Positions 8,089-45,878 of a stretch of 64,000 bases of DNA are shown here, one piece after another. Source of the DNA: Haladaptatus cibarius D43 (GTDB taxonomy: Archaea > Halobacteriota > Halobacteria > Halobacteriales > Haladaptataceae); NCBI RefSeq assembly GCF_000710615.1, contig NZ_JDTH01000001.1:1-64000 (forward strand), read 5' to 3'. The notes under the pieces are model-generated. The model saw only the letters and a program-made list of their open reading frames with translations. It had not been told where the DNA came from and ran no database searches. The position numbers were made by a program, and so were the translations under genes. Positions within the stretch are counted from its first letter, which is position 1; every line of letters begins with the position of its first letter.

Positions 8089-8625
8089 ATGTCCTCCATC
8101 ACAACCGAAAGCGAAGTCGTAGCAGGAACGACGCAGTGGCTCCGCGGACTGTGGGACTACTACCGAGAGTACACCCACACCGCGGTTCACGCCGCCTCGG
8201 CGGCGGCGCTCACCGCATTCGGTCTGCTCATCTTCATCGACCGACTGTTCGTGGTACTGGCGATTGTCGCGTACATCGCCCCACCCATCATCCTCTACAG
8301 CATCGGCTCCGACATCGGGAGGGAATCTGACGCGCAGGAAACCGCTACCAACCGACCCACATCCGGGGCAGACGCGAATACCAATCCAAACACCAACTCG
8401 GATACCGGCAACGGGGATGCGGATTCGGATGGCAGTGATGGAGACACCGATTCAGATGGGACTGACAGCGACACCGATTCGGACGGGAGTGATGGAGATA
8501 CGGATTCGGATTCCGACGATGGAGATACGGATTCGGATTCCGACGATGGAGATACGGATTCGGACAGCGATGATGGCGATTCAGACTCTGACGGGGCAGA
8601 TACAGACACCGACTCGGATAGCTAA
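8089..8625 (+). CDS. Small membrane protein with Asp/Ser repeat tail
   Basis: 178 aa. Residues about 33-75 hold two hydrophobic segments (AASAAALTAFGLLIF and LFVVLAIVAYIAPPIILY) after an N-terminal helix containing WLRGLWDYYREYTHTAVH. From about residue 85 the protein is almost wholly D, S, G, T and N, with GDTDSDSDD repeats to the end. The N-terminal half matches a type of conserved haloarchaeal two-helix membrane protein; the tail is a low-complexity, extremely acidic extension that probably lies in solution. No function is assigned. Confidence 0.8.
   Translation: MSSITTESEVVAGTTQWLRGLWDYYREYTHTAVHAASAAALTAFGLLIFIDRLFVVLAIVAYIAPPIILYSIGSDIGRESDAQETATNRPTSGADANTNPNTNSDTGNGDADSDGSDGDTDSDGTDSDTDSDGSDGDTDSDSDDGDTDSDSDDGDTDSDSDDGDSDSDGADTDTDSDS
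8440..8618 (+). repeat. In-frame tandem repeat coding Asp/Ser-rich tail
   Basis: Imperfect 27-nt units coding GDTDSDSDD (for example around 8507-8533, 8534-8560 and 8561-8587, the first two nearly identical) and more divergent TDSDG units before them. The unit length is a multiple of three, so copy-number change keeps the frame. Confidence 0.85.
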
Positions 8626-29470: not shown

Positions 29471-29533
29471 CTTTGTTTCCCGTTTTAGGGGGCATCCACC
29501 ACGCAGTGCTCACGGTTTTGTTCGCAGAAAATA

Positions 29534-29603
29534 CGCCGGGACTGGGATTTGAACTCGCCGAGACGTTCCGGGCCACTCACTACGTTCGTTTTCCAGGCGT
29601 GCG
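29534..29603 (-). pseudogene. Broken partial copy of tRNA-Ser
   Basis: A 21-nt block at 29534-29554 is identical to the 3' acceptor/T-arm end of the intact tRNA-Ser (29696-29716), and a second block TTCCAGGCGTGCG at 29591-29603 matches its anticodon arm (29742-29754). The part between (V-arm region) has been replaced and is 11 nt longer, one T-stem strand no longer pairs, and the D-arm and 5' acceptor strand are not recognisable. It reads as the remains of a duplicated tRNA gene, or as an attachment-site copy left by an integrated element. Confidence 0.65.
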
Positions 29604-29695
29604 ACTCGTCTGCTCAAATCCAGTCAAATCGTTTCTCGTTCGCTGGTTTGGCGAGCATACGCTACGCGATGCTCCCCGATTAACTCACTCGAAAA

Positions 29696-29777
29696 CGCCG
29701 GGACTGGGATTTGAACCCAGAATCCCATAAGGGAACACGCTTTCCAGGCGTGCGCTTTGCCATTCGGCCATCCCGGC
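29696..29777 (-). tRNA. tRNA-Ser (anticodon GGA)
   Basis: Minus strand: acceptor GCCGGGA/TCCCGGC, D-arm TGGCCGAATGGCAAAGC, anticodon arm CACGC-CTGGAAA-GCGTG with anticodon GGA, long V-arm TTCCCTTATGGGA as required for class II tRNA-Ser, T-arm CTGGG-TTCAAAT-CCCAG, discriminator G. CCA is not encoded. A TTTAAAAG box at about 29805-29812 lies about 30 nt upstream. Confidence 0.97.
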
Positions 29778-43180: not shown

Positions 43181-43921
43181 TTAAATCTCCGCCCTGTCGG
43201 TCGTCTCGGTGATTTGTTCGACCGCTTCGCGTGCCAGTCGGTCGAACGAGGCCGTCTGCGGGACGACATCGACACGAATCCCGTGGTCGCGGGCGGTATC
43301 GTGAGTTGGCCCGCCAATCGCGCCAACGGTCACGTCTTCGAGGTTGTTCAGCGTCTCGTCTCGAATTCCGCGCTCTTCTGCGGCCTCCAAGAAATGTTCG
43401 ACCGTAAGCGACGAGGTGAACAAAGCGGCGTCGAGGTCGCCCTCTGCGGCGAGTTCCGTGGACTCTCCCGACCCTTTCGGCCGAACGAGTTCGTAAAGCA
43501 CAGTTTCGTGCACCTCTGCGCCAGCGTCTTCGAGGCCGTCGAGCAACACGTCGCTTCCGTGGTTGCTTCGGGCGACTTCGACGCGTTTTCCGTCCACACG
43601 GTCTGCGAGCACCGCGACGAGGCCGCGCGAGGAGAATTTGTCAGGGACGACATCGACCTCGTAGTCGTGCTCCCGAAGGCTCGCGGCGGTTCCCTCACCA
43701 ATGGCGCAGACTGTGGCGTCGCCGGGATTCCAGCCAGCTTCGTATGCCAGTTCGACGCCCGTCTTGCTCGTCAGAACGACGAAATCCGCGAGTTGGGGCT
43801 TCTTTCCTGCCGGATGAACCGCGAGCATCGGGTCGGGAACCGGGTCTGCGTCGAGTGATTCGAGGAGGGAGACTGCATCCTCCAGTCGCTCGTCGTCCGG
43901 GCGAAAAACGGCGATTTTCAT
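43181..43921 (-). CDS. hemD: Uroporphyrinogen-III synthase
   Basis: 246 aa; cyclises hydroxymethylbilane to uroporphyrinogen III. The family is poorly conserved, but the first strand (MKIAVFRPDDERLEDAVSLL), VVLTSKTGVELAYEAG, FTSSLTVEHFLEAAEE and VGAIGGPTHDTARDHGI are characteristic. Its ATG overlaps the hemC stop by 4 nt, which confirms both start and role. Confidence 0.93.
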   Translation of the reverse strand: MKIAVFRPDDERLEDAVSLLESLDADPVPDPMLAVHPAGKKPQLADFVVLTSKTGVELAYEAGWNPGDATVCAIGEGTAASLREHDYEVDVVPDKFSSRGLVAVLADRVDGKRVEVARSNHGSDVLLDGLEDAGAEVHETVLYELVRPKGSGESTELAAEGDLDAALFTSSLTVEHFLEAAEERGIRDETLNNLEDVTVGAIGGPTHDTARDHGIRVDVVPQTASFDRLAREAVEQITETTDRAEI

Positions 43922-45030
43922 TCGGCATCAGCTCCCGTCTCTTTTCGAGCCTCGGCGATGAGTTCACGAGCACCTTTGTCCGCCAGTTCTGCCGCGACTT
44001 TCTTCGCGCCGGTAACGTGCGTCTGAATCGGAACGTCGCGCTTCATCGAAACGGTTTCCGACCCGTCCTGACTGAACACTTGGACTTCGACGTGGACGTT
44101 CTCGCCCTGAATGATGGCGTGGACGCCAATCGGGGCGATACAACCGCCGTTCAGTTCGCGGAGAATCGTCCGTTCGACGGTCGTTTCGACCCGTGTCCGT
44201 GGGTGGTCGAGTACCGTGTTGATGTCCTGCGAAAGCTCGTTGTCGAGCGTCGTGACCGCCAGCGCACCCTGTCCGGGCGCGGGAACGAACTGGCTCTGTG
44301 GCAGTCGGTCGTATTCGACGTGGTGAGCGAGTCCACTTCGCTGGAGTCCTGCCTCGGCGAGGACGATTGCGTCGTACTCCGTCTCGACCTCACGTTCAAG
44401 TGCCCGCCGTTTGATTTCAGAAAGGTCGTCGAACCACTCCTCGACGCGCTTGTCGTAGGGGAACTCGTAGCTGTCTTTCTTTCCAGAATGGGCCTTTCGC
44501 TCCTTTTCTTCCTCGGTTCGCTCCTCGTGTTCGGCCTGTAGTACCGGCGCGAGCAGTTTCTCGATTCGCGTATCGACGTTTCCGCGGAGCGGTTCGACTG
44601 TGAGGTCAGGTCGGTGGTTCAGCAGTTGTGCTTTCCGGCGAAGGCTGGACGTACCGACCACCGCACCCTCGCGGAGCGCGTCGATGGGCTTTCCATCCGG
44701 CGTGACCAACACGTCGTTCGCGCTCGCGCGCTCGGGGACGCCCGCGACGATGAGTTCGCTCGGATGCTCTGTCGGCATGTCCTTCATCGAGTGAATCGCC
44801 CCATCCACGTCTTCGTCCAGCACTCGCTGGTCTAAATCCCGAACGAACGCACCCGTCTTCCCGAGTTCTGTGATGAGCGCGTCGTCCAGTTTGTCGCCCG
44901 TCGTTTTCACTTCGACCAGTTCAACCGAAAACCGGCGGTCTTCCAGCGCCGCCGTTACCTCCCCTGATTGTCGAATAGCGAGGTCAGATCCTCGTGTCGC
45001 CAATGTAATCTCCTTTCCGCGATTGCTCAT
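43918..45030 (-). CDS. hemC: Hydroxymethylbilane synthase (porphobilinogen deaminase)
   Basis: 370 aa; joins four porphobilinogens. Signatures: LATRGSDLAIRQS, DGAIHSMKDMPTE, GTSSLRRKAQLL, RGNVDTRIEKL, FVPAPGQGALAV and the dipyrromethane-cofactor cysteine in LNGGCIAPIG. It is longer than bacterial HemC (about 310 aa) because of a charged 50-residue insert after RIEKL (AEHEERTEEEKERKAHSGKK region). Operon hemC-hemD. Confidence 0.95.
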   Translation of the reverse strand: MSNRGKEITLATRGSDLAIRQSGEVTAALEDRRFSVELVEVKTTGDKLDDALITELGKTGAFVRDLDQRVLDEDVDGAIHSMKDMPTEHPSELIVAGVPERASANDVLVTPDGKPIDALREGAVVGTSSLRRKAQLLNHRPDLTVEPLRGNVDTRIEKLLAPVLQAEHEERTEEEKERKAHSGKKDSYEFPYDKRVEEWFDDLSEIKRRALEREVETEYDAIVLAEAGLQRSGLAHHVEYDRLPQSQFVPAPGQGALAVTTLDNELSQDINTVLDHPRTRVETTVERTILRELNGGCIAPIGVHAIIQGENVHVEVQVFSQDGSETVSMKRDVPIQTHVTGAKKVAAELADKGARELIAEARKETGADAE

Positions 45031-45093
45031 ATCACACTCTGCGCACCGGACGGTAAAACCATCTTCGCAACCGACCTTTTACGACGGTCAAGA
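45031..45093. other. hemC upstream region
   Basis: Short stretch with the hemC promoter; CCTTTTACGACGG lies at about 45075. Nothing else seen. Confidence 0.35.
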
Positions 45094-45126
45094 GACAGGG
45101 TCTGTGCGATTCGCGCAGACCCTGTC
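45094..45126. terminator. Long perfect hairpin
   Basis: ACAGGGTCTG faces CAGACCCTGT, continued by an inner GCG/CGC pair around ATT. The stem of 13 bp or so is GC rich. It stands between hemC and the family 2 repeat and probably ends or insulates a transcript. Confidence 0.55.
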
Positions 45127-45138
45127 CGTCTCCCTGTA

Positions 45139-45272
45139 AAAGCTCGACCAAAAGCACTCCTCGCTTCCACCGGAAGACCTCCGGTCTTCCGTGCTTCCCC
45201 TCGCTTCGCTCGCGGGAACAGTGGTCGCTCGTCGGCCCGCTCGTTCGTCGCTAGCGCTCCTCACTCGCGGAG
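45139..45272 (-). repeat. Dispersed intergenic repeat, family 2 (copy 2, inverted)
   Basis: On the minus strand it reads CGCGAGTGAGGAGCGCTAGC, GACGAACGAGCGGGCC, then GTGCTTTTGGTCGAGCTTTT, as at 19615-19716. A hairpin GGAAGACC(TCC)GGTCTTCC lies at 45172-45190 where copy 1 has a different hairpin, again keeping pairing but not sequence. Confidence 0.75.
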
Positions 45273-45294
45273 AATTGCTAGCCCTTTGGCGGTT

Positions 45295-45541
45295 GTGTCA
45301 CCGGCAACAGCGCGAGGTAGGTCGGCCTGTTGATTTCAGGATGCGCGGTGAGTGGGCCTGAGCCAGCGGTCGGCGAAGGCCCACGAATACCGGGGAAGAG
45401 AGGGGAATACGAGGCAAGCGTTCTGTCTCGGCTGCGAGCGGGGAGGAACGACCCGCGAGCGCGGACAGTCGTGCGCCAGCGGTCGGCACGACTGTCCGTA
45501 TGCGGATAGCACCAGTTGAAACAGTAGTTAGACGGCTATCC
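45295..45541 (+). ncRNA. Candidate structured RNA of unknown class
   Basis: About 250 nt with no coding frame and unusually many stems: TCACCG (45299-45304) with CGGTGA; CAACAG with CTGTTG inside it; GTGGGCCT/AGGCCCAC at about 45353-45383; GGACAGTCGTGC/GCACGACTGTCC at about 45463-45498; GGATAGC/GCTATCC at 45504-45541. Two of these stems are closed by the same 13-nt tip GCCAGCGGTCGGC. The sequence lacks the signatures I know for archaeal RNase P RNA (no GAGGAAAGTCC) and SRP RNA (no GGAAGGGAGCA). The strand is a guess from the hairpin order. Confidence 0.5.
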
Positions 45542-45575
45542 AAAATTACATATATATAATATTATAGTTATCCAT

Positions 45576-45878
45576 ATGGTATTCGTCGCCGTATTTGTCG
45601 TCGCTCCCGTCTTTTCGGCTCTCGTGTACATGGACGCAACTCGGCGTGGGTTATCAGAACAGAAGCGTCTCCTTTGGACGTTCTCTGTCGGTATTCTGAG
45701 TTTCTGTGGATTTCTACTTCCACACCGCTTCGAAACAACCGTCAATCTCGTATATTATCAGGGCATCAAACCGGAACCTGTCGCTGTCTCACCATACGAA
45801 ACGTTGGTTCTCCATCTAACCGTGGGAGTTGTGATTAGCCTTATTTCCGTCCTTCTGTACTGGGTATTCAGAGAATAG
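45576..45878 (+). CDS. Small membrane protein, three helices
   Basis: 100 aa: VFVAVFVVAPVFSALVYMD, LLWTFSVGILSFCGFLLP and LVLHLTVGVVISLISVLLYW are hydrophobic. A TATATATAAT stretch at about 45550-45560 gives a plausible TATA box 20-25 nt upstream of the start. Lower GC than the neighbours. No family recognised. Confidence 0.7.
   Translation: MVFVAVFVVAPVFSALVYMDATRRGLSEQKRLLWTFSVGILSFCGFLLPHRFETTVNLVYYQGIKPEPVAVSPYETLVLHLTVGVVISLISVLLYWVFRE

What the first reader, a model, noticed from the sequence alone, without database searches (positions are those of the whole stretch)
45295..45541. Unassigned structured RNA with a repeated 13-nt hairpin tip
Seen: five good stems in 250 nt, of which two with unrelated stem sequences carry the same tip GCCAGCGGTCGGC. 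In the first, the tip is entered by GA on both strands, as in tandem sheared G-A pairs. The region lies between hemC and a small membrane protein gene and lacks coding frames. I could not fit it to RNase P RNA, SRP RNA, or a riboswitch that I know. Repeating a tip on different stems suggests a protein- or RNA-binding site.
Basis: partly seen in the sequence, partly recalled or inferred. Interest (0 to 1): 0.68.

Follow-up and report, generated by a model that had tools for sequence, protein, structure and literature searches.

The report
Haloarchaeal interspersed mosaic hairpin repeat
The flagged stretch is one copy of a small family of hairpin-forming repeats scattered between genes in the salt-loving archaeon genus Haladaptatus, whose hairpin stems keep changing while staying paired and whose tip often stays the same; it is more likely a self-rewriting repeat than a dedicated RNA gene.

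Summary
In detail: tip GCCAGCGGTCGGC sits at 45362-45374 and 45475-45487 on unrelated stems, with GA/GA under the first; a degenerate third copy lies at 45414-45426. No Rfam family matches. It is not a single-copy RNA gene. It is one of 12 copies in this genome of a family found in 8 of 9 genomes of its genus (Haladaptatus). Outside the genus there are only weak hits. The copy is fused upstream to a different, more abundant repeat (from about 45072).

Across 49 aligned matches the two hairpins covary strongly (95% of cells paired; 24 of 29 pairs with double changes). The helices that would close a larger RNA fold do not covary. Stems are replaced wholesale even at orthologous sites, and loops are inverted on unchanged stems, also at the window's own hemC site. 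Orientation to neighbouring genes is mixed, and no TATA-like box lies upstream of 44 copies. G-U exceeds A-C only mildly.

Best reading: an interspersed mosaic hairpin DNA element of the REP/BIME/BOX kind, whose stems are kept paired by template switching and exchange between copies. It is unusual in keeping the tip and changing the stems. A multi-locus RNA family is not excluded (about 0.2).

The parts
45072..45157 (+). Upstream abundant haloarchaeal repeat: CGACCTTTTACGACGGTC [hairpin] CTCCCTGTAAAAGCTCGACCAAAAGC
   Evidence: 18 matches in this genome and matches in 38 of 59 genomes for window 45060-45320; pattern in 22 of 40 genomes, 1 match for the reversed-pattern control; several copies lie directly after stop codons
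45204..45338 (+). Linking repeat segments: TCGTCGGCCCG..GCTAGCCC and one GGCGGTTGTGTC unit
   Evidence: Same segments in L046, L051 and several of L089-L107
45339..45505 (+). Core of the tip-bearing element (GGATGCGC .. CCGTATGCGG), in the form with the middle module
   Evidence: R1 hit starting at G000:C1:45339 (E 1.5e-10); start and end match other copies
45352..45384 (+). Hairpin A, with tandem GA/GA below the tip
   Evidence: Fold -21.9 kcal/mol; columns covary in A5
45362..45374 (+). Tip copy 1, GCCAGCGGTCGGC
45390..45409 (+). Purine-rich joiner (CCGGGGAAGAGAGGGGAATA); consensus CGGGGAGGNNNGGGGACG in other copies
   Evidence: A4/A5 alignments
45410..45430 (+). Middle hairpin CGAGGCAAGCGTTCTGTCTCG with a degenerate third tip (45414-45426)
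   Evidence: Intact version in L041, L047, L052, L053
45434..45461 (+). Middle repeat GCGAGCGGGGAGGAACGACCCGCGAGC, shared outside the genus
   Evidence: 22-40 nt matches at 85-100% identity in other genera
45462..45498 (+). Hairpin B, perfect 13-bp arms
   Evidence: the G005 (H. litoreus) ortholog has the same stem with an inverted loop
45475..45487 (+). Tip copy 2, GCCAGCGGTCGGC

Best explanation
The region is one copy of an interspersed, mosaic, hairpin-forming DNA element confined to Haladaptatus (2-12 copies per genome in the 8 genomes that have it). A conserved frame (GGACGCG - hairpin A - purine joiner - optional middle module - hairpin B - GCATGCGG) carries two palindromes. SHOWN: dispersal, old orthologous sites, covarying stems, wholesale stem replacement, loop inversion on the same stem. 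INFERRED: the stems stay paired because DNA synthesis switches template between the arms (which homogenises arms and can invert loops), starting at the short GCC/GGC tip as a fold-back nucleus, and because hairpin cassettes are sometimes exchanged between copies. INFERRED: the element has no single dedicated host function; when transcribed it may incidentally affect the transcript. How new copies arise is unknown.
For: Multi-copy and dispersed: 49 hits at E<=0.01 in 8 of 9 genus genomes, 12 of them in this genome. Old sites: about ten orthologous flanks shared between species, e.g. one intergenic site with hits in 6 of 9 genomes. At one shared site the flanks are 90-96% identical, while the only match within the element is 77% over 78 nt. 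Stem replacement at the window's own hemC site: GTGGGCCTGA in this genome, GGACACCTGC in G005, same tip. Loop inversion on a retained stem: hemC hairpin B (this genome vs G005), ftsY-like-site hairpin A (L048 vs L053), pdcd5-like-site hairpin B (L042, seen, vs L150). Template switching between inverted-repeat arms is reported to homogenise arms and invert spacers (PMC8604942, passages) and to create and maintain hairpins (PMC8794818, abstract). Closing helices: 0 of 4 P1 pairs changed on both sides; own versus swapped end pairing no better, 715 of 2000 permutations reach it. Mixed orientation to neighbours. No TATA-like motif within 120 nt upstream of 44 copies.
Against: In hairpins of A5, G-U cells exceed A-C cells 41 to 21, while hairpins of the neighbouring 5' repeat show 8 to 14. 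This is what folding of the given strand as RNA would favour, though a strand-neutral count gives 42 to 32, and my collapse of orthologs by eye of the list gives about 31 to 19. The GA/GA mismatch persists in 11 of 37 complete copies, which arm homogenisation should remove. Junction motifs stay conserved at sites whose surrounding intergenic DNA has diverged strongly (by eye), which suggests constraint. Nearest-neighbour tests show vertical inheritance above chance (A 12 of 34, chance 2.3; B 13 of 27, chance 2.1) and no clear excess of within-genome similarity (A 6, chance 4.1; B 4, chance 3.0), so current gene conversion within genomes is not demonstrated. Zero TATA-like matches is a weak negative: no control set was run.
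Confidence: 0.6

Rival explanations
1. A genus-specific family of paralogous structured RNA genes (about ten loci) that present a common tip to a protein or RNA partner, with stems free to vary.
For: 24 of 29 pairs with changes on both sides, 95% of cells paired versus 73% shuffled; G-U over A-C 41:21 against 8:14 in control hairpins; GA/GA kept in 11 of 37 copies; sites kept over species.
Against: No TATA-like box upstream of 44 copies; only 19 of 37 A hairpins and 19 of 37 B hairpins have the tip, 5 of these 38 inverted; closing helices unsupported; unrelated stems and tips replace one another in both hairpins.
Confidence: 0.2
2. A cis-acting hairpin of neighbouring transcripts (terminator, 3' UTR stabiliser or processing site).
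For: Nearly all copies lie between predicted reading frames, several soon after a co-directional stop codon, e.g. L109, L048, L140; REPs and BOX elements are reported or proposed to act so (PMC3733652, PMC3049150, passages).
Against: At other sites the element is antisense to both neighbours, e.g. the pdcd5-like site and the hemC site in G005 and G008; a palindrome could still act on both strands.
Confidence: 0.15
3. A non-autonomous transposon (MITE, or IS200/IS605-type palindrome-associated element) currently mobilised in trans.
For: Dispersal; presence limited to one clade at the hemC site; hairpins are typical of IS200/IS605 ends (PMC2817692, passages).
Against: No Y1 transposase (PF01797) in this genome, G001, G004 or G008, which all carry copies; one broken match in G007, which has none of the element. 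No target duplication established. Many sites are old and shared.
Confidence: 0.05

Closest known systems
REP / BIME (repetitive extragenic palindromes; GTAG- and CGTC-tagged families)
   Same: Intergenic palindromes, often paired 20-100 bp apart, with complementary stem changes (PMC3733652, PMC2817692, passages)
   Different: REP families are defined by a GTAG/CGTC tag and a family stem; here stems are replaced and the tip is shared; few copies; archaeal; the window genome has no Y1 transposase
BOX elements of Streptococcus pneumoniae
   Same: Modular: outer parts with an optional middle unit, stable fold, slow spread (PMC3049150, passages)
   Different: No terminal inverted repeat or target duplication shown here; hairpins differ in sequence between copies
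Repetitive hairpin-forming / double-hairpin elements of mitochondrial DNA
   Same: GC-rich hairpins between genes, varying from genome to genome, sometimes as double hairpins (PMC2800124, passages)
   Different: In sponge RHEs stems are conserved and loops vary, the reverse of here; that fungal double-hairpin elements show compensatory change is recalled, not checked

Membership tests
RNase P RNA, SRP RNA, riboswitch or other Rfam RNA | Match to the covariance model | tested here: not met
   No match at gathering score; nothing convincing at E<=10 in 45000-45600, nor in nine relative loci at E<=1
REP/BIME | Interspersed extragenic palindrome in many copies | tested here: met
   49 hits in 8 of 9 genus genomes; copies lie between predicted reading frames; copy number is low
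REP/BIME | GTAG or CGTC unpaired tag beside a family stem | tested here: inconclusive
   GACG (reverse complement of CGTC) precedes both hairpins in many copies, but it was not compared with the CGTC families, and no family stem exists
REP/BIME | Associated REP-type tyrosine transposase (GTAG families) | tested here: not met
   PF01797: 0 matches in this genome; 5 of 9 genus genomes have one
BOX-like modular repeat | Composite with optional middle modules | tested here: met
   Copies with and without the middle module, also at orthologous sites, e.g. L048 without and L053 with it
Transposable element (MITE) | Terminal inverted repeats and target duplication | tested here: inconclusive
   Short ACCGC..GCGGT at the ends of some copies; own versus swapped pairing no better; target duplication not tested
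Structured non-coding RNA gene | Covariation of the whole fold | tested here: inconclusive
   Hairpins A and B yes, closing helix P1 no
Structured non-coding RNA gene | Discrete transcript | not testable with these tools
   No RNA data; no TATA-like box upstream of 44 copies

The most novel reading that the evidence does not exclude
A genus-specific, multi-locus family of structured RNAs in Haladaptatus with two hairpins of freely rewritten stems that present a constant GCC-AGCGGUC-GGC tip, often seated on tandem G-A pairs, to one partner; the tip also serves as a fold-back nucleus that rewrites the stems, so that the RNA evolves by whole-stem replacement.
Probability: 0.2. Interest if true: 0.65.

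Novelty: new variant of a known kind. Interest (0 to 1): 0.4.

Why it matters
The family is a natural record of hairpin evolution: one frame, a recurrent tip, stems swapped in whole, loops flipped at orthologous sites. It shows how compensatory changes, the usual proof of a functional RNA, may arise by DNA-level template switching, and it offers a test set for telling the two apart. It also adds a repeat family of the REP/BOX kind in haloarchaea, where my literature searches (listings only) showed none.

Tried and rejected
Rejected: RNase P, SRP or any Rfam RNA. Rejected: protein coding on the minus strand (no Pfam match for the 81-aa frame). Rejected: plasmid-borne element (no match in the plasmid collection in 'distant' mode). 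Rejected as the main reading: a three-way-junction RNA; RNAalifold proposed a closing helix, but it has no double changes in 49 rows and own-versus-swapped pairing is at chance. Considered and not supported: current mobilisation by an IS200/IS605 Y1 transposase. Considered: K-turn or K-loop; hairpin A has symmetric GA/GA without the 3-nt bulge (recalled definition). Led nowhere: hits outside the genus (G011, G013, G016, G018, G020; best E 8e-6; three near 1e-4) are weak and were not followed. The pattern scan that named organisms also gave two Streptomyces hits, taken as chance.

Limits: E-values of the models are rough (short calibration). Model R1 was built from 10 copies that are again among the 49 rows of A5. 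Rows with the middle module (L040, L047, L052, L054 among others) are partly mis-registered; all rows were kept, one search gives both all rows and 38 rows chosen by length, and searches used 36, 37 and a further filtered set. G-U cells are favoured by the model that picked the rows. At the hemC site G004 was not read because my anchor missed it; the model search has no hit there. At the ftsY-like site G007 was not read; the model search has no hit in G007. Gene names other than hemC (ftsY, pdcd5, idsA, ribL, hemG) are recalled from the protein sequences and were not tested.

Full report
WHAT WAS CHECKED. The window is haloarchaeal: archaeal 16S rRNA at its start, and porphobilinogen deaminase (hemC) at 43918-45030 on the minus strand. 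The tip GCCAGCGGTCGGC is present twice as stated, and a degenerate third copy lies in a middle hairpin. A repeat of 13 nt or more arises in 3 of 2000 shuffles, and the region folds better than all of 200 shuffles (z -3.46). No Rfam family matches.

A DISPERSED FAMILY. The tip occurs 14 times exactly in this genome; with one mismatch allowed it occurs 44 times against 19 for the reversed control pattern. A few of these are single hits without paired arms (L039, L043, L045). BLAST gives 7 matches in this genome, the window itself included, and up to 8 in G005. A covariance model built from ten copies without the middle module finds 49 hits at E<=0.01 in 8 of 9 genus genomes: G000 12, G001 2, G002 5, G003 5, G004 5, G005 9, G006 6, G008 5, G007 none. 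Outside the genus, 5 of 19 family genomes give weak hits (best 8e-6). A second model over 146 order genomes gives 6 genomes, 3 of them in the genus and 3 weak.

ANATOMY. The core is GGACGCG(C) - hairpin A - CGGGGAGGNNNGGGGACG - (optional middle module) - hairpin B - GCATGCGG(T), with short conserved flanks, often ending ..CCGCTTTCA upstream and GCGGTNNTTT downstream. The middle module contains a third hairpin with tip GCAAGCGGTCTGC and a 27-nt GC-rich repeat that also occurs in other genera. In the window the core lies at 45339-45505 and is fused upstream (45072-45338) to a different, more abundant repeat. That repeat gives 18 matches in this genome, occurs in other genera, and in several copies follows stop codons directly.

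COVARIATION. On 49 aligned matches, 95.0% of cells form standard pairs against 73.0% after shuffling. Of 29 pairs, 24 have changes on both sides, and sliding the partner by 1-3 columns drops pairing to 31-51%. All of this comes from hairpins A and B: the closing helix P1 has 0 of 4 pairs with double change, and each copy's own ends pair no better than swapped ends (715 of 2000 permutations reach the observed mean, 36 copies). Two independent hairpins are therefore supported, and a larger junction is not.

STEMS CHANGE, TIP STAYS. In 37 complete copies, hairpin A has the tip (2 mismatches allowed) in 18, inverted in 1, another tip in 18; hairpin B has it in 15, inverted in 4, another in 18. GA/GA below the tip is seen in 11 of 37 A hairpins. 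At the window's own hemC site, hairpin A has stem GTGGGCCTGA in this genome, GGACACCTGC in G005 and a related stem with an inverted loop in G008. Hairpin B has the same stem in this genome and in G005 but an inverted loop. Inversion on a kept stem is also seen at the ftsY-like site (L048/L053) and the pdcd5-like site (L042/L150). Arm homogenisation and loop (spacer) inversion are the reported signature of template switching between inverted-repeat arms (PMC8604942, passages; PMC8794818, abstract and outline). I propose that the short GCC/GGC tip nucleates fold-back synthesis, so that whatever lies 5' of it is copied into the 3' arm. This is inference.

SITES AND MOVEMENT. About ten intergenic sites are shared between species by their flanking genes. 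One, downstream of an ftsY-like gene, has hits in 6 of 9 genomes, a shortened form in G008, and none in G002. The hemC site has the element in G000, G005 and G008 and a remnant in G006. G002 and G007 show only parts of the upstream repeat, G001 and G003 show neither, and G004 was not read. The element was thus gained or lost there within the genus. At one shared site the flanks are 90-96% identical, while the only element match is 77% over 78 nt. Nearest relatives of each hairpin lie at the same site more often than chance (A 12 of 34, B 13 of 27; chance 2.3 and 2.1). Most of the rest lie at other sites, without a clear within-genome excess. No Y1 transposase is found in this genome.

RNA OR DNA. 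For RNA: G-U exceeds A-C in the hairpins, 41 to 21, while hairpins of the upstream repeat give 8 to 14, and the GA/GA motif persists. Against: a strand-neutral count gives 42 to 32; orientation to neighbours is mixed, for example sense at the ftsY-like site and antisense to both neighbours at the pdcd5-like site and at hemC in G005 and G008; no TATA-like motif lies within 120 nt upstream of 44 copies (no control set); loops invert. I weigh this about 60% for a DNA-borne mosaic hairpin repeat without a dedicated RNA role, 20% for an RNA family, 15% for a cis-acting transcript hairpin, 5% for a currently mobile element.

COMPARISON. The nearest kinds are REP/BIME (PMC2817692, passages; PMC3733652, abstract and passages), BOX elements (PMC3049150, passages) and mitochondrial hairpin elements (PMC2800124, passages). 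The modular build and intergenic spread agree. What differs is the reversal: in sponge elements stems are conserved and loops vary, whereas here the tip is shared and the stems are replaced. Palindrome-associated elements of Haloquadratum are recalled only; the paper PMC3119063 was seen in a listing and not read. Literature searches listed no description of this family; the held library is open-access only.

Noticed in passing
window 45072-45300: An abundant haloarchaeal repeat (CCTTTTACGACGGTC..hairpin..TGTAAAAGCTSGAYCAAAAGC), many copies per genome and often directly after stop codons, also in other genera; its hairpins vary between copies too.
   Followed up: partly
window 45434-45461: A 27-nt GC-rich segment of the middle module matches at up to 100% over 22-28 nt in genomes of other haloarchaeal genera, so it is a wider repeat captured by this element.
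   Followed up: partly
window 45546-45878: A 100-aa membrane-protein-like frame with an AT-rich upstream stretch (ATATATATAATATTATAG) sits between the element and the next gene only in this genome among the hemC-site sequences read; no Pfam match above cut-off.
   Followed up: partly
G000:C1:425932-426203, G000:C1:678046-678332, G003:C22:296404-296680: Copies of the element in divergent back-to-back pairs about 50 nt apart recur at three places.
   Followed up: no
window 29530-29554 and 29692-29716: The 3' end of the tRNA gene at 29696-29777 (minus) is duplicated 162 nt away (24 of 25 identical), like the attachment-site scar of an integrated element.
   Followed up: no
window 8383-8625: Tandem 27-nt repeats that would encode Asp/Ser-rich units (reading of the frame by eye).
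   Followed up: no
L056 (G005:C3:408200-411200), about 1440-1560: Near-tandem copies of the middle module (CGAGGCAAGCGGTCTGTCTCG-AAACAGCGAGCGGTGA..) without hairpins A and B, so this module also occurs on its own.
   Followed up: no
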